Of a stretch of 42,078 nucleotides of DNA, positions 28,676 to 36,127 are shown one piece after another; within the stretch, counting starts at the first letter, position 1; every line of letters starts with the position of its first letter. The notes below the pieces were generated by a model that ran no database searches, had not been told where the DNA came from, and saw nothing but the letters and a program-made list of their open reading frames with translations. Source of the stretch: Parafrankia sp. EUN1f (lineage in GTDB: Bacteria; Actinomycetota; Actinomycetes; Frankiales; Frankiaceae); the NCBI RefSeq assembly GCF_000177675.1, contig NZ_ADGX01000075.1:1-42078 (forward strand), in the 5' to 3' direction. Both the position numbers and the translations under genes were made by a program.

Positions 28676-28916
28676 CCGCATGACCGTATGACCTTCGGGC
28701 GCCCCGGACAGCTACCCGACACCCGAATCACCCCGGCCAGACCCCGCTATCACGTCCACCTGCTCGCCGAACGGTGCCGAGCGGGCCTGAACGGACTTTT
28801 GTCGGAGTCATGACACAGACCCCATCGTCTACGAGTAGACGCCTTTGGTTATGTATGGGGACTGCTACCGACACGTCCTATAGCGTGATCGGGTTGGCGT
28901 GGCGGGGACGGAGGCC

Positions 28917-30608
28917 ATGGGTAGCTCACTGGTACCGATCATGCTCATTGTGGTGCTTCTTGTGGGCGCCGTTGTCTTTGTCGTGCTCTCCAGCCGGGCC
29001 CCGCGCACTGGGGCCGACGCCGGGCGCCGGCGGACGCTGGAGACACGCCGCTCACGGCCGGGGGCCATCCCGTTGCGGGAGCAACCGAGCCCGGAGCCGC
29101 CGGGCGAGCCGAGCGGCCCGGATGCCACGGATGACCCGGACGGCATGGTTCCGGGGTTCTCCGCGCCGGCCGCCGCGGGCGGGCCGGTCGCGGGCGGGCC
29201 GGCCACACCGGGCTACAACGCGGCCGAAACGACCGCCGACGAGGACGCCGCGGACTCGGGCGAGGCCACCCGCTCGGCGTGGGATGACGCTACCGGATGG
29301 AACGAGTGGGTCGACACGGATGCCACCCGGGTCAGCAGCCTGAACGAGCCCGACCCGGGCGATGAAACCGACACGGCCACAACCACGGCGGATGACCGCC
29401 AGGACGCGGGTCACAATATCGGTGGCGTGTACCCACCGCACGCCACGGGCGGATACGACTCAGGCAGCAGGGACACCTACATGAACGACAGCCGGGACCC
29501 GGACGCCACCGGGTGGACCCCGCCTCCCAGCGGCCGCCCGCACCGCAGCGACGTCGACGACTCCGCCTACCGGCTGTCGACGGCGCAGGAGGGCCGGGGG
29601 CCGGCCACCGGAGGCTTCCCGATCCCCGAGCCACCCACGCACTCGGGATACTCCGATGCGGGGAGCTCAGGCCCGGGGTACCCCGGGCCGGCGTCCTACC
29701 CCGATCCCTCGGCCGCCCAGACCAGGCGGGTCCCCGTCGGCCCGGAGCACGCGCCGAGCTGGGGCTCGGGCCACGCACCAGCGCCGCCGGCCCCACCCCT
29801 GCTGCCTCCGCTGCAGGCTCATCCGCAGGCGCAGACGGAGGCGGAGGGCACCTCGCCCGAATCAGGCGCGGCTGGCATCGTCGCGGCCGAACCGGCCCAG
29901 ACCACGACGCCGGCGCTGCGCCTCGCCGCGGCCGGGCGCTCCAGGCGCGGCAAACGTGGCGGCCCGAACGAGGACGCCTGGGTCGTCTCGGACGGTCTGC
30001 TGGCGGTGGCGGACGGCGTCGGCGGCGAGGCCGCGGGCCAGATCGCGTCCACGCTCGCGGTCACCACCGTCGCGGGCTTCCGCCCCCAGTACGCCCGGGA
30101 CCCCGTTGACGGCCTGCGGCAGGCCATCGCGCGGGCCAACCAGGTCGTCCGGGAGAAGCCGCGGGAGGAGCCGGCCTGGCGGGGCATGGCCTGCACGCTC
30201 GACGTCGTCATCCTCGGGCGACAGCAGTCGACCGGCGAGACCCTGTTCATCGCCCACGTCGGTGACAGCTCGGTCTGGCTGCAGCCGCAGAAGGGGCGCC
30301 CGCACCAGATCACGACGCCGCACGCGATCAAGAACGGCCCGCTGCTCAACGCGATCGGCCTCGCCGACCAGATCGAGGCGGATCTTCTGCACGAGCCGGT
30401 GCGCGCGGGCGACCGGGTGATTCTCGCCAGCGACGGCATCACGAAGGTGATGACCCCGGAGCAGTTGCTCGGGCTCATGACCGAGCTCGGCGCCGAGCCA
30501 CCGGAGAAGGCCGCGGACGCCCTCGTCGAGGCCGCACTGATCGCCGGCGCTCGAGACGACACCACGATCGTCGTCGCCGACCTCGTGTCGGAGCCGTCGT
30601 CACGGTGA
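28917..30608 (+). CDS. Membrane-anchored PP2C-type Ser/Thr protein phosphatase
   Basis: 563 residues. One N-terminal transmembrane helix (about 6-27) is followed by about 300 residues rich in Pro, Gly, Asp, Ser and Thr, probably disordered. The catalytic domain lies at about 335-560. PP2C metal-binding motifs are all present: GGPNEDAW (about 348), LLAVADGVGGEAAG, IAHVGDSSVWL, RVILASDGITKVM and GARDDTTIVVADL. An in-frame GTG (28899) is possible; ATG 28917 fits GGGGACGG better. A TATA-like hexamer at 28879-28884 may be the -10. The next gene starts 25 bp on and encodes a membrane sensor-like protein, so the two are probably co-transcribed. No cognate kinase is in the window. Confidence 0.9.
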   Translation: MGSSLVPIMLIVVLLVGAVVFVVLSSRAPRTGADAGRRRTLETRRSRPGAIPLREQPSPEPPGEPSGPDATDDPDGMVPGFSAPAAAGGPVAGGPATPGYNAAETTADEDAADSGEATRSAWDDATGWNEWVDTDATRVSSLNEPDPGDETDTATTTADDRQDAGHNIGGVYPPHATGGYDSGSRDTYMNDSRDPDATGWTPPPSGRPHRSDVDDSAYRLSTAQEGRGPATGGFPIPEPPTHSGYSDAGSSGPGYPGPASYPDPSAAQTRRVPVGPEHAPSWGSGHAPAPPAPPLLPPLQAHPQAQTEAEGTSPESGAAGIVAAEPAQTTTPALRLAAAGRSRRGKRGGPNEDAWVVSDGLLAVADGVGGEAAGQIASTLAVTTVAGFRPQYARDPVDGLRQAIARANQVVREKPREEPAWRGMACTLDVVILGRQQSTGETLFIAHVGDSSVWLQPQKGRPHQITTPHAIKNGPLLNAIGLADQIEADLLHEPVRAGDRVILASDGITKVMTPEQLLGLMTELGAEPPEKAADALVEAALIAGARDDTTIVVADLVSEPSSR

Positions 30609-30633
30609 CGACCCGCCGCGGGTGACGCGGGGT

Positions 30634-32550
30634 ATGAGGCTCGACCCCGCGTTCCTGTTCGGGCCCGTGAGCCGGGTCGGCCGGGTGCTGCGGTGGCTGC
30701 GCCGCCATCTGCTCAGCATGTTCGTGGTGCTGGGGCTCATCGCGCTGGCGCTGAGCCTCATCGGTACCTACCAGCACTTCGCGGCGACGCCGGAAAGTTT
30801 CACGTGGACCAACGTGGTCTTCTTCGCGTCAACCCTGTTCCTCGCGGACGGGACGATGTTCGAGGGCGGCGGGCAGTTCCCTCCCGCGCTGGAGATTGCC
30901 CGCTTCCTGGCGCCGCTGGCCACCGCGGTGGGCGTCGCCGACGCGGCCAGCACCCTTTTCGCGCACCGGTTCGAGCAGTTCCGGGCCCGGCACGCCCGCC
31001 GGCACGTCGTCGTCTGCGGCAGCGGCCCGACGGCGTCGGCGCTGGTGGACAAACTGGTGGGGTCCAGGCGGGTGGTGCTGGTCGCCGAGGACGCCGAACG
31101 CGAGTACCCGGACGCCGAGCGCCCCCCGAACCTGCTCCGCATCAACGGGGATCCGGCCGAGCTGCTCGTGCTTCAGGGGGCCGGGGTCGCGCGTGCCGAC
31201 GTCATCTACAGCTGCCTCGCCGACACCGCCTCCAACCTGGCCGTCACCCTCACCGCCCGGGCGGTCCTGCGGGCCGGGCGGACCCGCGCCCGGTTCCGCC
31301 GGTTCGCCGACGCCCGGGCGGACAACCCACTGCGCTGCCTCGCCCAGGTCGGAGACCTGTCGTTGCTCCCGCACCTGCGCGCGCGGTGGATCGGGCTGGA
31401 GGGCGACCCGGGCTTCCGGCTCGACTTCTTCGCGGTCGAGGTCCTCGGCGCGCATTCCCTGCTCAACAGCAACGCCCCGGCCTGGTCCCGGCCGGGGCAC
31501 GACGACACCGCACCGCACCATCCGCCGCACCTGGTCGTCCTGGGCACCTCGGGCCTCGGGCAGGCCGTCGTCATGGAGCTCGCGCGGCGGTGGCGGGACA
31601 ACAGCCCGGCCGGCGGCCCGTTGCTGTGCGTCGTGCTGTGCGCACCGGACGCGTCCGTCAAGGCTGCCGCGATGCGCTCGCGTGAGCCCGCGCTCGGCCG
31701 GGTCACGCTGCTGTGTCACGACAGCGCCTCCGGTGACCTCCCCCCCGAACTCGTCCTGATCAGCCGCGCGCCGGGCGAGGCACCGACACCACCCGAGTTC
31801 GTGTACGTCTGCCATCGGGAGGAGGAGGAGGCCCTGCTGCGCGGTCTCGAGGTGGTCCGTGCGGTCGGTGCCGGCAGCCTCGGCGTCAACCGCACCAGGA
31901 TCGTCGTGCGGACGGGGCGCCAACGCAGCTTCGAGGACGTGTTCGGCCCGCGTGAGCCAACCACCGACCAGACTGACCCGGCCGGCGATGGTGGGCTGCT
32001 GGACAACGTCGGCGGTGGGCTGCGGTTCTTCGCCGTGAACGACGAGGCACTGCCGCTCGACCCCGGAGCCAACGACCTCATCGAGAACTTCGCTCAGATC
32101 ATCCATGAGAAGTACCTCGCGAAGGAGCTCGCCGCGGGCGCGCAGATCGGCTCACGGCGCGGTCTGCGCCCGTGGGCGGAGCTGGCACCTGATCTCCAGG
32201 CCTCGAACCGGGCACAGGCGATCGGCTACAGCGAGGTCCTGCGCCGGCGGAACTGGATGCTGGTGCCCCTGGGGGAGCATGATCCCGAGTTCGTCTTCAC
32301 CGAGGAGGAGGTGGAACAGCTGGCTCCCGAGGAGCACCTGAGGTGGCGGCGCGAACGGGAGAGCCGCGGGATGCGGTTCGGGCCCACCGAACAGGACGGC
32401 TCCCACCCGTCACTCATCGAGTGGGAGAGCCTCTCCGCGGAAGATCAGGACCGCAGCCGCGCCGTCGTGCTCAACATGCCGGCGGTGCTCGCCGCGGCGG
32501 ATCTCGGCATCGTGCGGATGATGCCCCGGCCGCCGGACCCGACCGTCTGA
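30634..32550 (+). CDS. Membrane protein with tandem RCK/TrkA-N-like domains and a C-terminal RyR domain
   Basis: 638 residues. Helix 1 (about 27-50), a loop with FFASTLFLADGTMFEGGG, and helix 2 (about 80-105) give a two-helix layout like a simple ion channel, but there is no potassium-filter TVGYG. A Rossmann domain follows (about 115-300: HVVVCGSGPTASALVDKL, then NGDPAELLVLQGAGVARADV), typical of TrkA-N/RCK. A second Rossmann begins HLVVLGTSGLGQAVVMEL (about 290). The C-terminal 130 residues resemble the ryanodine-receptor RyR domain: NFAQIIHEKYL, QAIGYSEVLRRR, EEHLRWRRERESRGMRFG, SHPSLIEWESLSAEDQDRSR. GTG 30622 is an alternative start. Placed after a PP2C gene, it looks like a nucleotide-gated membrane signalling protein; ligand and ion are unknown. 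Confidence 0.75.
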   Translation: MRLDPAFLFGPVSRVGRVLRWLRRHLLSMFVVLGLIALALSLIGTYQHFAATPESFTWTNVVFFASTLFLADGTMFEGGGQFPPALEIARFLAPLATAVGVADAASTLFAHRFEQFRARHARRHVVVCGSGPTASALVDKLVGSRRVVLVAEDAEREYPDAERPPNLLRINGDPAELLVLQGAGVARADVIYSCLADTASNLAVTLTARAVLRAGRTRARFRRFADARADNPLRCLAQVGDLSLLPHLRARWIGLEGDPGFRLDFFAVEVLGAHSLLNSNAPAWSRPGHDDTAPHHPPHLVVLGTSGLGQAVVMELARRWRDNSPAGGPLLCVVLCAPDASVKAAAMRSREPALGRVTLLCHDSASGDLPPELVLISRAPGEAPTPPEFVYVCHREEEEALLRGLEVVRAVGAGSLGVNRTRIVVRTGRQRSFEDVFGPREPTTDQTDPAGDGGLLDNVGGGLRFFAVNDEALPLDPGANDLIENFAQIIHEKYLAKELAAGAQIGSRRGLRPWAELAPDLQASNRAQAIGYSEVLRRRNWMLVPLGEHDPEFVFTEEEVEQLAPEEHLRWRRERESRGMRFGPTEQDGSHPSLIEWESLSAEDQDRSRAVVLNMPAVLAAADLGIVRMMPRPPDPTV

Positions 32551-32576: not shown

Positions 32577-34313
32577 TCAGTGCAGGCGTTCGTCGGCCGG
32601 GCAGTCCAGGGCGCTGGCACGCGTCAGACCGTCCACGGACAGGCGCGCCGACAGGCGGACGGCCCCACTGGACTGGGTGAGGATGCCGGTCCAGCCCCCC
32701 GCCGCACGGAACACGCAGGCGTCACCTTCGGTGAGCTGCCAGTACGGGGTGTAGTGCACCAGGACCGTGACGAAGCCCGGGTTCGCGAACGACACCGCGA
32801 TCGAGCTGACGCCCAGCTCGGTGAGGGTGGCCGGCCCGTGGACCAGACCTGCGGAGTCCCGGACCAGCCAGATCTTCCAGTCCGCGTTCTGCCACGCGAG
32901 CTCCAGGTACGGCAGCCCGGAACGGAGCAGCTCGGCCTCGGCCACCGCTGACGGGTCGAGATCGACGTTCGGCAGCGCGACATAGGTGACGCCCCGGGCG
33001 AGCAGCCAGTCGTGATACGTCTCGGCCGTCAGCGTCCCGTCGTAGAACAGCGCGTTGTACTTGCTGTCGGCCTGGCGCAGCCAGCCCCGGCTCATGGGGA
33101 TCCGCGGGGGCACATAACGCGCCTCCCAGTGCGACCGGGTGAAGGGAATCTCGACCCGGCCGACCGGCACGGGGCTGTCGTTGTCCAGGTAGTCCAGCAT
33201 CTCGGTGTAGTAGCCAGGCGACGCGGACGGATCACCATGTGTGACCAGGGCTCCGTGGACCGGGCCGATCTGCCAGGCGATCAGCGGAATCGCCACCGCA
33301 GCCAGCGCCCGCGGACGGCTGGCCAGGAACACCGCGGCAGCCGGCCCGGCGAGCATCGTCGCCGGGCGGGCGATGTTGCCCCCGATCTGGGTGGGCACGA
33401 AGAAGAAGAAGATCGCCGCCGCCGCCCACAGCAGCAGACCGTTGCGGACCGCCCGCTGCTCCTTCGGCACCAGCAGCAACCCGCACCCGATCAGGACCAG
33501 CAAGGAGATGAACGTGACGGCCGGGAACGGCTGGTAGCCCTCGTCAGGGAAGGCCAGCGCGACGATGATCCCCGCACTCGCGCCCAGGAACCCGGCGAGC
33601 ACCCGGCGCGGCAGCGACCCGAGCAGAGCCAGGCCGACCATCAGCACGAAGCCGGCGGCAAGCGGCGACGCGAGCGACGACAACACCGCTCCGAGCCACA
33701 CCAGCCAGACCCTGCGCTCCCTCGCGCCGACCAGCGCGAGGGCGCCGAAGGCCATGCCGAGCGCGAACGGCATCCGGCCGACGACCAGGTTGGCCACGGT
33801 CGCGACCGCGAACCACACCAGCGCCAGATCATGCCCGCGGCGGCCCCCCGGCCCACGCAGCAGCCTCGTCACGATCGCGGTCGAGGCGACACACGCCAGC
33901 ACCCCGATGGTCTGGACCCCAAGCAGGGCACCCAGCGGGGGAAAGAGCACACTGTAACCGAGTATGGGATGGCCGCCGTACCAACCGTCGTCCCACAGAA
34001 GCGCTCCGCCGTGCTCGAACAGCCAGACCCGATACTCCTGAGCGGGAGTGTCCGGGCCGGTCACGTCGAAGCACACCGAGATCAGACAGAGCACGGCGGT
34101 CAGCAGCCAGGGCCTGCGCACCACCGCGGTGCCCAGCGCCGCTGCCGCCTCGGCCAGCCGGCTACGGCGACGAGGGCCCACGGCGAGGCAGGAGGTCTGC
34201 GGGAGTGAGTCGTGGCGACGACCGGTCCCACTGTGGCGCGCCAGCTCGGGCGATTCCGGGATTTCGCCGGTGGTGGTCCCGAGCGGCGGATCAGGCGTCG
34301 CCAGCAGGCCCAC
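32577..34313 (-). CDS. Polytopic membrane protein, candidate GT-C glycosyltransferase
   Basis: 578 residues with about ten hydrophobic helices between residues 65 and 360, then a C-terminal domain of about 210 residues without helices (RVEIPFTRSHWEARYVPPR, LTAETYHDWLLARGVTYVAL). This multi-helix membrane part plus soluble tail, with an acidic first outer loop (GPDTPAQEYRVWLFEHGG), resembles lipid-linked-sugar GT-C enzymes, but I cannot assign a family. GTG 34313 has GGGAGG well spaced upstream and makes the ORF overlap the divergent mannosyltransferase by 109 bp; GTG 34181 would remove the overlap but lacks a ribosome site. Its neighbours suggest envelope glycan synthesis. Confidence 0.7.
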   Translation of the reverse strand: MGLLATPDPPLGTTTGEIPESPELARHSGTGRRHDSLPQTSCLAVGPRRRSRLAEAAAALGTAVVRRPWLLTAVLCLISVCFDVTGPDTPAQEYRVWLFEHGGALLWDDGWYGGHPILGYSVLFPPLGALLGVQTIGVLACVASTAIVTRLLRGPGGRRGHDLALVWFAVATVANLVVGRMPFALGMAFGALALVGARERRVWLVWLGAVLSSLASPLAAGFVLMVGLALLGSLPRRVLAGFLGASAGIIVALAFPDEGYQPFPAVTFISLLVLIGCGLLLVPKEQRAVRNGLLLWAAAAIFFFFVPTQIGGNIARPATMLAGPAAAVFLASRPRALAAVAIPLIAWQIGPVHGALVTHGDPSASPGYYTEMLDYLDNDSPVPVGRVEIPFTRSHWEARYVPPRIPMSRGWLRQADSKYNALFYDGTLTAETYHDWLLARGVTYVALPNVDLDPSAVAEAELLRSGLPYLELAWQNADWKIWLVRDSAGLVHGPATLTELGVSSIAVSFANPGFVTVLVHYTPYWQLTEGDACVFRAAGGWTGILTQSSGAVRLSARLSVDGLTRASALDCPADERLH

Positions 34314-36127
34314 CCGCCACCTCCCAGGCTCACACGGCCGGCCCCACCGGCACCTTGATCAATACGCACGGACACAGCGTCGACATCTTCGCCGCTGACA
34401 CCGCCAGCGCCACCGACGCCACCGCCGACGCAGCCAGCGCCACCGACGCCACCGACGCCACCGACGCCGACGCTGCGGGGGCCCCGGCCGGCCGCAAGGC
34501 AGGCACGCCGCCAGGGCGGCGACTGATCGTGGCGGGCACGATCGCCGCGATCATCGCCATGGTCGGCGAGGCGCGGCTCGGCCCCCGGGACCCACAGGCC
34601 AGCGACCCGTCATCCTGGTGGGGAATTCTCCCATCCGCGCCCCCCTCGGACACGGTCAGGGGCGTGCTTGCGGCCACAGCGGTGCTGGCCGTGATCGCCC
34701 TCTGCCTGACCTGGGTCATCCTGCTGCGGTACGCGCTGCGTCACGCGCTCCCGGCCCGCACGGCCGCCGTCACCGCCCTCGCGTGGGCAACCCCGTTCGC
34801 GGTCGGCCCTCCGTTGTTCAGTCGGGACGTCTACGCCTACGCGGCCCAGGGCGAACTCGCCCGGTACGGGCTGGATCCGGCGACCCACGGGATCGGCGAT
34901 CTGCTCTCACCGGACGCGGCCGGCACGGCGGGCGCGGCGTTCGTCGCCGCCGTCGACCCCCGGTGGCGCGAGACGCATGCTCCCTATGGCGGGCTCGCCG
35001 TGGGTGTGGAACGGTTCGCGGCAGCGGTCGGGAGCGCTCTCGGGTCCGGCCCGGCCACCGTGACGGTCGTGCTGCGGATCATCGCGGTGGTCTCCACTGT
35101 TGCCCTCGTCCTGCTGATGCTGCGCCTGTGGCGCAGGCCGGGCCCACTCACCGCTGGGCCGGGTTCGCTCACCGCGGCTGGCTCGCCCGCCGGCACGGGC
35201 ACAGCGCCCGGCCCGGTCGACTCCTACGCCTCGATCGTGCTCGTCCTGCTCGCGGCCAATCCGTTCGTGATCATCCATCTGATCGGTGGAGCGCACCTGG
35301 ACGCGCTCGCCGCGGCACTGCTCGCGGCCGCGCTGGTCGTCGACCGGATGCGCATCCGCGAGCGGCCCTCCCCCGGGCACCACGACCTGTTGCTCGGCGC
35401 GGCGGCCGTGGCGCTGGCCTGCCTCGCCGGGAGCGTCAAGGCCACCGCCTTCCTCGGAGTCGCCTGGCTCGTGGTCGCCCACGCCCGGGACGGATGGCGA
35501 AGATCCCTGGGAGCGGACGTCGCCGCCGGGACGATCGCGGTGGTCGCCGCAAGTGCCGCGGGCGGCTTCGGGCCGACCTGGCTCGGCGCGCTGGCGACGT
35601 CCGGCAAGCTCGAGACGGGTGTGGCCCCGGCGTCGATCCTCGCGACCGCAGCCGGCGCGCTGGCCCAGCTGGTCGGGCTGGATGTCGCGGACGACAGCCT
35701 GCTGCGGGCCACCCGCGCCCTCACCCTGCTCACGGCTGGTCTCATCGTCGGCTGGCTCCTGTTGCGAGCCTGGTCAAGGCCGCCCGCGAGCGGGCACCGG
35801 GATGATCTGGCCGTCGTGGGCTACGGCGGGATGGCCGTGGCTCTCGGTTCCCCCGTGCTCTACCCGTGGTATCTCGCGCTCAGCGTGCCGTTCCTGGCAG
35901 CCCTCGTCGCACTCGCCGCGCTCGACCGACGGACCAGGGCGGTGGTCGCGCTGGTCGTGGTCACGTCGGTGTGGCTGTGTGCCGCGACGTTGTCACCGCT
36001 CGCCGCAACCTGGCGGCTGCTCGGCCGAGCCGGGGTACCTGGCGCGGTAGTGGCGGCGGCGCTGGCTCTGCTCGCGGTGGTGGCGGCGGCACCGCGGGTG
36101 CAGCGGCGCGCGGCTCGCTCGCGGTAG
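34205..36127 (+). CDS. MptB-like polyprenol-phosphomannose-dependent mannosyltransferase
   Basis: 640 residues with about 12 transmembrane helices from residue 110 on. The outer-loop signature PLFSRDVYAYAAQGELARYGLDP (residues about 201-223), followed by VDPRWRETHAPYGGLAVG, is that of the MptA/MptB alpha-1,6-mannosyltransferases, which extend lipomannan-type polymers from polyprenyl-phosphomannose outside the membrane. Residues about 60-100 are a low-complexity Ala/Thr/Asp tract (SATDATADAAS type) encoded by short repeats. GTG 34205 follows a perfect AGGAGG (34190-34195). The 5' end overlaps the divergent gene by 109 bp and the 3' end overlaps the convergent GT87 gene by 167 bp. Confidence 0.82.
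   Translation: MSRGDDRSHCGAPARAIPGFRRWWSRAADQASPAGPPATSQAHTAGPTGTLINTHGHSVDIFAADTASATDATADAASATDATDATDADAAGAPAGRKAGTPPGRRLIVAGTIAAIIAMVGEARLGPRDPQASDPSSWWGILPSAPPSDTVRGVLAATAVLAVIALCLTWVILLRYALRHALPARTAAVTALAWATPFAVGPPLFSRDVYAYAAQGELARYGLDPATHGIGDLLSPDAAGTAGAAFVAAVDPRWRETHAPYGGLAVGVERFAAAVGSALGSGPATVTVVLRIIAVVSTVALVLLMLRLWRRPGPLTAGPGSLTAAGSPAGTGTAPGPVDSYASIVLVLLAANPFVIIHLIGGAHLDALAAALLAAALVVDRMRIRERPSPGHHDLLLGAAAVALACLAGSVKATAFLGVAWLVVAHARDGWRRSLGADVAAGTIAVVAASAAGGFGPTWLGALATSGKLETGVAPASILATAAGALAQLVGLDVADDSLLRATRALTLLTAGLIVGWLLLRAWSRPPASGHRDDLAVVGYGGMAVALGSPVLYPWYLALSVPFLAALVALAALDRRTRAVVALVVVTSVWLCAATLSPLAATWRLLGRAGVPGAVVAAALALLAVVAAAPRVQRRAARSR
34390..34482 (+). repeat. Short tandem repeats encoding an Ala/Thr/Asp tract in the mannosyltransferase
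   Basis: Degenerate units of GCCACCGACGCC and GCCAGC repeat in frame, giving ATDATDATDADAA-like residues ahead of the first membrane helix. Confidence 0.7.

What the first reader, a model, noticed from the sequence alone, without database searches (positions are those of the whole stretch)
28917..32550. PP2C phosphatase paired with a membrane RCK-RCK-RyR protein
The second protein joins two membrane helices, two Rossmann/TrkA-N-like domains and a RyR-like domain. RyR domains are best known from animal calcium channels and are sparse in bacteria. Its position 25 bp after a membrane-anchored PP2C gene suggests a signalling unit in which a nucleotide- or NAD-related ligand and phosphorylation act together at the membrane. 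The pore region has no potassium selectivity filter. This is my best candidate for an undescribed system in the window.
Basis: partly seen in the sequence, partly recalled or inferred. Interest (0 to 1): 0.68.

Follow-up and report, generated by a model that had tools for sequence, protein, structure and literature searches.

The report
RyR-domain channel-like protein beside phosphatase
A soil bacterium related to Frankia carries a membrane protein built like a nucleotide-gated ion channel that ends in the same small module as animal muscle calcium channels, and in other actinobacteria its relatives often sit beside genes for enzymes of the kind that make immune alarm molecules from NAD.

Summary
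The window (a Frankia/Parafrankia-type genome) encodes an N-terminally anchored PP2C phosphatase (28899-30608) and, 13 bp after its stop, a 642-aa protein with two membrane helices, two RCK/TrkA-N Rossmann domains and a two-repeat RyR (R12) domain (30622-32550). The model matches the GsuK two-RCK channel and CASTOR/DMI1 gating rings; the C-terminus matches human RyR3 Repeat12. No K+ filter motif is present.

The PP2C pairing is real but local: 17 of 19 Parafrankia/Frankia genomes. Orthologous PP2C genes elsewhere in Frankiaceae keep much of the neighbourhood without the RyR gene. Outside Frankiaceae the recurring partner is a TIR gene (19 of 33 loci within 5.4 kb; 0.23 expected; control 0 of 112 RyR-less TrkA_N matches within 8 kb). 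Frankiaceae carry many TIR genes (30 matches in this genome), but none near RyR in 15 loci.

With the 2026 preprint showing that phage RyR domains bind or cleave 2'/3'cADPR, I read the protein as a channel-like membrane effector gated by a TIR-made (cADPR-type) nucleotide, with PP2C as co-expressed regulator. Ligand, pore activity and defence are untested. Thoeris membership is not claimed.

The parts
28899..30608 (+). PP2C-type Ser/Thr phosphatase, 569 aa (GTG start; ATG at 28917)
   Evidence: Pfam PP2C_2 1e-14; the sequence shows NED, ADGVGG, GDS, SDG and RDDTT motifs (their role as PP2C metal-binding motifs is recalled)
28923..28994 (+). N-terminal hydrophobic membrane anchor of the PP2C protein (residues 9-32)
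   Evidence: read from the translation; no topology program run
29931..30593 (+). PP2C catalytic domain (residues 345-565) after a long Pro/Gly/Ser-rich linker
30609..30621 (+). 13-bp gap between the PP2C stop and the GTG start of ORF B
   Evidence: the same gap in L006
30622..32550 (+). 642-aa 2TM-RCK-RCK-RyR protein
30706..30783 (+). first membrane helix (about residues 29-54)
   Evidence: AF2 model, helix 9-54; hydrophobic stretch
30805..30861 (+). pore-helix-like segment (62-74) and short helix 77-80; ADGTMFEGGG where a K+ filter would be
30883..30957 (+). second membrane helix (residues 88-112) with the conserved LEIARFLAP stretch
30997..31479 (+). RCK/TrkA-N domain 1 (residues 126-286)
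   Evidence: Pfam TrkA_N 3.5e-11; model
31519..32076 (+). RCK-like domain 2 (about residues 300-485)
   Evidence: model and structural alignments; not found by Pfam
32077..32517 (+). RyR (R12) domain, both repeats (residues 486-632)
   Evidence: Pfam sees the second repeat; domain model aligns over both repeats to RyR3 Repeat12, Z 13.3, and Bt-hRyR_12, Z 13.6
32335..32337 (+). His572, equivalent of RyDEP H75 (ligand ribose)
   Evidence: 45 of 45 rows of A1; equivalence from the +3/+25/+42 spacing of H75/W78/H100/D117 seen in a relative
32344..32346 (+). Trp575, equivalent of RyDEP W78 (adenine)
   Evidence: 44 of 45 rows, Phe in one
32404..32406 (+). His595, equivalent of RyDEP H100 (phosphates)
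   Evidence: 38 of 45 rows, Ser/Thr in 7 non-Frankiaceae rows
32455..32457 (+). Ser612 at the place of RyDEP D117 (catalytic acid)
   Evidence: Asp in 27 of 45 rows; Ser in the window and three close relatives

Best explanation
ORF B is a channel-like membrane effector built on the two-RCK gating-ring plan (GsuK, CASTOR/DMI1) whose C-terminal RyR domain senses an NAD-derived nucleotide of the cyclic-ADP-ribose type made by TIR-domain enzymes. Proposed sequence of events: a TIR protein, activated by phage or stress, turns NAD+ into a cADPR isomer; the nucleotide binds the R12 pocket (H572, W575, H595); the gating ring moves; the non-K+-type pore opens, and ion leak stops growth or kills the cell. 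In Parafrankia and Frankia one chromosomal copy could serve the many scattered TIR genes, and the neighbouring, probably co-transcribed membrane PP2C would set or reset its threshold by removing phosphate from it or a partner. Shown here: architecture, predicted fold, conserved pocket residues, the TIR linkage outside Frankiaceae, and the kept PP2C junction in Parafrankia/Frankia. Inferred: the ligand, gating, pore activity, defence role, co-transcription and what PP2C does.
For: Fold: GsuK Z 19.4, MtDMI1 and LjCASTOR gating rings Z 19.2 and 19.1; RyR3 Repeat12 with AMP-PCP Z 13.3 over both repeats. Pocket: H572 in 45/45, W575 in 44/45 and H595 in 38/45 rows, matching residues that hold ADPR in RyDEP (PMC13232231); that preprint reports 6 of 8 tested phage RyR homologues binding 2'/3'cADPR, the two measured further with nanomolar affinity. 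Linkage: 19 of 33 non-Frankiaceae RyR loci have a TIR ORF within 5.4 kb, 10 within 300 bp, 7 of those on the same strand; 0.23 expected from TIR numbers and genome sizes with an 18-kb window. Control: in the 15 phylum-sample genomes holding both families, 12 of 18 RyR matches but 0 of 112 RyR-less TrkA_N matches lie within 8 kb of a TIR match; at 20 kb, 12 and 1. Co-occurrence: TIR in 15 of 19 RyR+ against 63 of 376 RyR- genomes of the phylum sample, G000 left out, and in 14 of 18 against 104 of 340 non-Frankiaceae genomes of the class. Frankiaceae: 30 TIR_2 matches in this genome, 11 or more in 31 of 33 Frankiaceae; G014 and G016, without ORF B or RyR match, have none. PP2C junction kept in 16 of 16 readable loci.
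Against: No TIR ORF lies within the fetched flanks (up to 8 kb) of RyR in 15 Frankiaceae loci although TIR genes abound, so for this very protein the TIR link is by homology only. It sits in a housekeeping region (purine genes, nadBC-like genes, clpC, gdh) and is inherited like a core gene, unlike most defence systems. 14 of 33 non-Frankiaceae loci show no TIR within the fetched stretch (several end at contig ends), and 4 of 19 and 4 of 18 RyR+ genomes have no TIR match at all. No PADLOC model matched ORF B at E up to 1. The window's RyR score is borderline and its D117 place is Ser. The co-occurrence p-values ignore shared ancestry. Pore activity cannot be read from the sequence.
Confidence: 0.45

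Rival explanations
1. Housekeeping ion channel or transport regulator: in Frankiaceae the protein is an ordinary osmotic or ion-homeostasis channel gated by NAD(H), ADP or ADPR through its RCK and RyR domains, and PP2C adjusts it; no immune role.
For: Core-like inheritance and housekeeping surroundings in Frankiaceae; GsuK, the best structural match, was solved with NAD and with ADP; no TIR neighbour in 15 Frankiaceae loci.
Against: The TIR linkage of its relatives and the 0-of-112 control; absence of the K+ filter; enrichment in TIR-bearing genomes.
Confidence: 0.27
2. Signal terminator: the RyR domain degrades or soaks up cADPR isomers at the membrane, as phage RyDEP proteins do, to shut TIR signalling off, so the protein is an off-switch rather than an effector.
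For: RyDEP is a glycosidase and two of its homologues act as sponges (PMC13232231); both H572 and the Asp are present in 27 of 45 rows; Frankiaceae with many TIR genes could need an off-switch.
Against: The acid D117 is Ser in the window; a membrane and gating-ring scaffold is unnecessary for a hydrolase; 18 of 45 rows lack the Asp; small stand-alone RyR proteins exist for such a job (L050-L052).
Confidence: 0.13
3. Non-conducting membrane receptor: the RyR/RCK part binds a nucleotide and changes the activity or position of the PP2C enzyme, giving a phosphatase-based signalling unit; the two helices are only an anchor.
For: PP2C junction kept in 16 of 16 readable Parafrankia/Frankia loci; no recognisable filter; in L082 a weakly kinase-like RyR protein, a PP2C and a TIR-propeller gene lie together.
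Against: The helix-pore helix-helix arrangement ahead of a gating ring is modelled as in 2TM channels; in 13 other Frankiaceae loci and 32 of 33 loci elsewhere the RyR gene has no PP2C hit nearby.
Confidence: 0.12

Closest known systems
GsuK (two-RCK prokaryotic K+ channel, 4gx0-4gx5)
   Same: two membrane helices with a pore-helix-like segment followed by two RCK domains; best structural match (Z 19.4, rmsd 8.5 over 360 residues)
   Different: no TVGYG-type filter; extra RyR domain at the C-terminus; about 13% identity
CASTOR/DMI1 (POLLUX) gating rings of plants (6o6j, 7vm8)
   Same: tandem-RCK gating-ring fold (Z 19.1-19.2); a non-canonical filter in CASTOR is recalled
   Different: 13-16% identity; no plant-family model among the four Pfam families listed for ORF B; no RyR domain there (recalled)
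Animal ryanodine receptor Repeat12 domain (PF02026; 9l91, 6uhh)
   Same: same two-repeat fold, Z 13.3; RyR3 Repeat12 was solved with ATP, ADP and AMP-PCP; family profile hits RyR2 at E 1.9e-37
   Different: only this domain is shared; the RCK gating ring is not part of animal RyRs (recalled)
Phage RyDEP glycosidase and sponges (PMC13232231)
   Same: RyR domain; H75, W78 and H100 equivalents present
   Different: D117 equivalent is Ser in the window; fused to a membrane gating-ring protein of the host, not a phage protein
Thoeris anti-phage systems
   Same: in relatives, a TIR gene next to a gene for a protein with a nucleotide-binding sensor domain
   Different: sensor is RyR, not SLOG or Macro (those recalled); no TIR gene near the window pair
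PstP/Stp1-type PP2C phosphatases
   Same: PP2C domain with metal-binding motifs; NCBIfam Stp1 model hit 1.8e-32 but 112.8 bits under its cut-off of 230
   Different: N-terminal anchor and long linker; RyR gene as neighbour

Membership tests
RyR (R12) domain family, PF02026 | Pfam score over the curated cut-off | tested here: met
   29.3 against 27.4 bits in hmmscan; but 25.4, under the cut-off, in the genome search; profile of relatives about 1e-37 to animal RyR
RyR (R12) domain family, PF02026 | two-repeat R12 fold | tested here: met
   Z 13.6 (Bt-hRyR_12) and 13.3 (RyR3) over about 150 residues; best non-RyR fold Z 3.6; on predicted models
RyR (R12) domain family, PF02026 | nucleotide-binding residues H, W, H | tested here: met
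   H572, W575, H595, spacing as in RyDEP H75/W78/H100 save a 2-residue deletion
RyDEP cADPR glycosidase | catalytic dyad H75 and D117 | tested here: not met
   D117 place is Ser612 in the window; Asp present in 27 of 45 rows
RCK-gated 2TM channel (GsuK/MthK type) | 2TM + pore helix + RCK gating-ring fold | tested here: met
   on the predicted model; TrkA_N over its cut-off
RCK-gated 2TM channel (GsuK/MthK type) | K+ selectivity filter TVGYG/TVGFG | tested here: not met
   FLADGTMFEGGGQFP in its place
RCK-gated 2TM channel (GsuK/MthK type) | ion conduction | not testable with these tools
   needs electrophysiology
CASTOR/POLLUX/DMI1 | sequence match to the plant family model | tested here: inconclusive
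   not among the four families listed for ORF B at E up to 1; gating-ring fold similar
Thoeris | TIR (ThsB) gene beside the effector gene | tested here: not met
   no TIR ORF in the flanks of 15 Frankiaceae loci; no TIR family in the 28 window ORFs scanned with Pfam. TIR within 5.4 kb in 19 of 33 relatives' loci outside Frankiaceae
Thoeris | SLOG or Macro sensor in the effector (recalled) | tested here: not met
   no such Pfam match in ORF B at E up to 1
Thoeris | anti-phage activity | not testable with these tools
   needs plaque assays
PP2C phosphatase (PF13672/PF00481) | Pfam match and metal-binding acidic motifs | tested here: met
   1e-14, 55 against 24 bits; motifs read from the sequence

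The most novel reading that the evidence does not exclude
Actinobacteria use RCK-gating-ring channels with a ryanodine-receptor R12 sensor as membrane effectors of TIR immunity, gated directly by a cyclic ADP-ribose isomer. Frankiaceae have turned this into a single core effector shared by dozens of TIR proteins and, in Parafrankia and Frankia, placed it under a dedicated membrane PP2C. It would be a bacterial case of a cADPR-type signal acting directly on an RyR-domain channel.
Probability: 0.33. Interest if true: 0.9.

Novelty: new variant of a known kind. Interest (0 to 1): 0.68.

Why it matters
Whether cADPR acts directly on animal ryanodine receptors is a long-debated question (recalled). 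A small bacterial channel-like protein whose RyR domain sits beside TIR enzymes in its relatives would make the link between NAD-derived signals and RyR-domain channels directly testable in a simple system. It also points to a kind of membrane effector for TIR signalling that no PADLOC model matched (the window protein only), to a reason for phages to carry RyR proteins, and to how Frankiaceae, which carry unusually many TIR genes, might use them.

Tried and rejected
PP2C as the defining partner was rejected as a general rule: it holds for Parafrankia/Frankia only. A RyDEP-like enzyme was considered and marked down for the window because D117 is Ser. A plasmid search with the L092 protein gave three Sinorhizobium records covering residues 90-233 only, without the RyR part. 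17 phage records hold distant RyR-like stretches (query L065), and the viral structure library returned phage 'RyR domain' proteins, 2 of them at E below 0.001; neither told more about function. The sigma-70 scan found no promoter-like site, which says little in an actinobacterium. NCBIfam gave only sub-cut-off TrkA matches for ORF B. PADLOC gave ORF A a weak match to a candidate model (PDC-M21C, 8e-4) and ORF B none. The VIA-align rows list no CBASS or Thoeris effector, but those rows are a second look and prove nothing.

Literature: ten searches listed no paper on a bacterial TM-RCK-RyR protein or its TIR linkage, as far as titles and abstract starts show. The library holds only CC0/CC BY/CC BY-SA papers; two papers of the Aravind group that may treat prokaryotic RyR domains were not held, so prior prediction cannot be excluded. 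Of PMC13232231 I read parts 1 and 2 of 6 and term passages. PMC9503650, PMC7159879 and PMC8195603 were only searched for terms. All other papers were seen as search listings.

Full report
What is there. Two same-strand ORFs occupy the stated interval. ORF A (28899-30608) is a PP2C phosphatase with an N-terminal hydrophobic anchor and a long Pro/Gly/Ser-rich linker. ORF B (30622-32550) is a 642-residue protein. Pfam finds TrkA_N at 129-227 (3.5e-11) and RyR at 561-625 (1e-6, 29.3 bits, cut-off 27.4). The RyR score is borderline and falls under the cut-off in the genome-wide search (25.4 bits), so I tested it further. A profile of 45 sequences (A1) hits PDB sequences of animal ryanodine receptors at E about 1e-37 and a GsuK entry at 2.5e-17.

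Structure. The model of ORF B (mean pLDDT 84.8, pTM 0.79) shows a long first helix, a pore-helix-like segment (62-74), a second membrane helix (88-112), two Rossmann domains (about 126-286 and 300-485) and a helical C-terminus. Best structural matches are the GsuK channel (Z 19.4), the MtDMI1 and LjCASTOR gating rings (Z 19.2 and 19.1) and TrkA (Z 19.0) (Foldseek). Residues 481-642 modelled alone with 62 sequences (pLDDT 89.3) align over both repeats with the Bt-hRyR_12 chimera (Z 13.6) and human RyR3 Repeat12 with AMP-PCP (Z 13.3); the best non-RyR fold has Z 3.6. So Pfam sees only the second of two repeats. The loop where a K+ filter should be reads FLADGTMFEGGGQFP; another RCK protein of the same genome has TVGFGD (L182).

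The pocket. The preprint PMC13232231 reports that phage RyDEP, an R12-family glycosidase, holds its ligand with H75, W78, H100 and D117, and that 6 of 8 other phage RyR homologues form complexes with 2'/3'cADPR while none of the eight cleaved them. In L079 the spacing H, +3 W, +25 H, +42 D is exact (sequence, counted by eye). In the window the residues are H572, W575, H595 (two residues nearer) and S612. Across the 45 rows H572 is kept in 45, W575 in 44, H595 in 38 and Asp at 612 in 27 (the last column is the least surely aligned). The window and three close relatives have Ser there, which speaks for binding rather than hydrolysis.

Distribution. In the order sample 33 of 35 genomes have a match to ORF B, though in G026 it is only a weak TrkA_N match and in G034 only the RyR part. 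RyR matches occur in 20 of 396 genomes of the phylum and 50 of 393 of the class: 32 of 35 Frankiaceae and 18 of 358 others. The family search misses G021, which has an 82% identical ORF B. G014 and G016 lack both; they have small genomes, G016 only 63% complete.

The PP2C partner. Of 19 genomes of tool genera g1 and g2, 17 (the window and 16 loci) have PP2C directly upstream of the RyR gene on the same strand. First candidate starts lie 4 bp before to 93 bp after the PP2C stop (L008 also has one 56 bp before); four loci (L015, L017, L019, L021) have a 4-bp overlap. G010 ends at the contig edge, and G003 lacks the arrangement. In 13 further Frankiaceae loci (G003, g4, g6, g7; flanks up to 8 kb) my profile finds no PP2C. 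Yet an orthologue of this PP2C (52-77% identical) exists in 14 of 17 such genomes searched. In the eight such loci read, the metallophosphatase gene lies upstream in 8, clpC in 7 and the 578-aa membrane-protein gene on the other side in 6, with no match to ORF B in any. The RyR gene therefore joined, or was lost from, an older PP2C locus. The tree puts the 16 PP2C-linked rows on one side of a fully supported branch.

The TIR partner. I built TIR, PP2C and RyR profiles from loci and scanned the wide neighbourhoods. Outside Frankiaceae, 19 of 33 RyR loci have a TIR ORF within 5.4 kb, 10 within 300 bp and 7 of those on the same strand, against 0.23 expected from TIR numbers, genome sizes and an 18-kb window. 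One of 33 has a PP2C hit nearby (L082). Several of these genomes have a single TIR match (G108, G130, G184, G412, G589). As a control, in the 15 phylum-sample genomes holding both RyR and TIR, 12 of 18 RyR matches but 0 of 112 RyR-less TrkA_N matches lie within 8 kb of a Pfam TIR match; at 20 kb the numbers are 12 and 1 (Fisher p 6e-13 at 8 kb). Genome-wide, TIR is present in 15 of 19 RyR+ and 63 of 376 RyR- genomes of the phylum sample, G000 left out (p 1.7e-8), and in 14 of 18 against 104 of 340 in the class outside Frankiaceae (p 8e-5). These p-values ignore shared ancestry. In the tree the TIR-linked rows comprise the f4 clade with L127 and, elsewhere, L087, L092, L132 and L125; with unlabelled rows left out the label needs only one change, and several of these rows have long branches of unsure place.

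RyR in other settings. Relatives join RyR to TPR and SLOG-like stretches (LSDAT_prok below its cut-off; L079, L091) and to a kinase-like stretch below its cut-off, in L082 beside a PP2C and a TIR-propeller gene; a stand-alone RyR neighbours a TIR protein with a weak phosphorylase match (L077).

Results against this reading. No TIR ORF lies in the flanks (up to 8 kb) of RyR in the 15 wide Frankiaceae loci, although these genomes carry many TIR genes: 30 matches in this one, 11 to 43 in 31 of 33 Frankiaceae, 6 and 1 in the other two. The window gene lies among purine, nadB- and nadC-like, clpC and gdh genes and looks like a core gene. 14 of 33 outside loci show no TIR, some at contig ends, and 4 of 19 and 4 of 18 RyR+ genomes have no TIR match.

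Conclusion. The best-supported reading is a channel-like membrane effector or receptor with an R12 nucleotide sensor whose ligand is probably a TIR-made cADPR-type molecule; PP2C is a lineage-specific neighbour and probable regulator. Ligand, conduction and defence are untested. I call it a new variant of a known kind: known modules (RCK channel scaffold, RyR sensor, TIR signalling) in a combination that the ten library searches did not show, with the caveat that two relevant papers were not held.

Noticed in passing
L042:8013-10286 (G003:C1): The RyR gene of this genome is split by one in-frame stop between the TM-RCK part and the RyR part; its PP2C locus has no RyR gene (L175).
   Followed up: partly
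L050, L051, L052 (about 7.9-8.5 kb): Several g2 (Frankia) genomes hold a second, stand-alone RyR protein just after a large gene; in L051 that gene is an AftD-type arabinofuranosyltransferase.
   Followed up: partly
L091:3907-8219: A protein with RelA/SpoT, TPR, SLOG-like (below cut-off) and RyR stretches lies divergently beside a TM-RCK-RyR gene.
   Followed up: partly
L082:6513-15573: Weakly kinase-like RyR gene, PP2C gene and zinc-ribbon-TIR-beta-propeller gene in one neighbourhood.
   Followed up: partly
L077:7977-10560: Small RyR protein beside a TIR protein with a weak nucleoside-phosphorylase match.
   Followed up: no
Frankiaceae genomes (G000-G033): Large TIR repertoires, up to 43 matches per genome; outside Frankiaceae the class sample shows at most 10, though only 10 candidates per genome were scored there.
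   Followed up: partly
window:14947-18050: nadB-like and nadC-like genes overlap here, about 11 kb before the PP2C gene; ordinary NAD synthesis genes.
   Followed up: no
window:25375-27120: Purple-acid-phosphatase-like metallophosphoesterase, kept upstream of the PP2C gene in the eight other Frankiaceae loci read.
   Followed up: no
window:32577-37508: Two large, apparently membrane-bound proteins without Pfam match (32577-34313, 34205-36127) next to a GT87-type protein.
   Followed up: no
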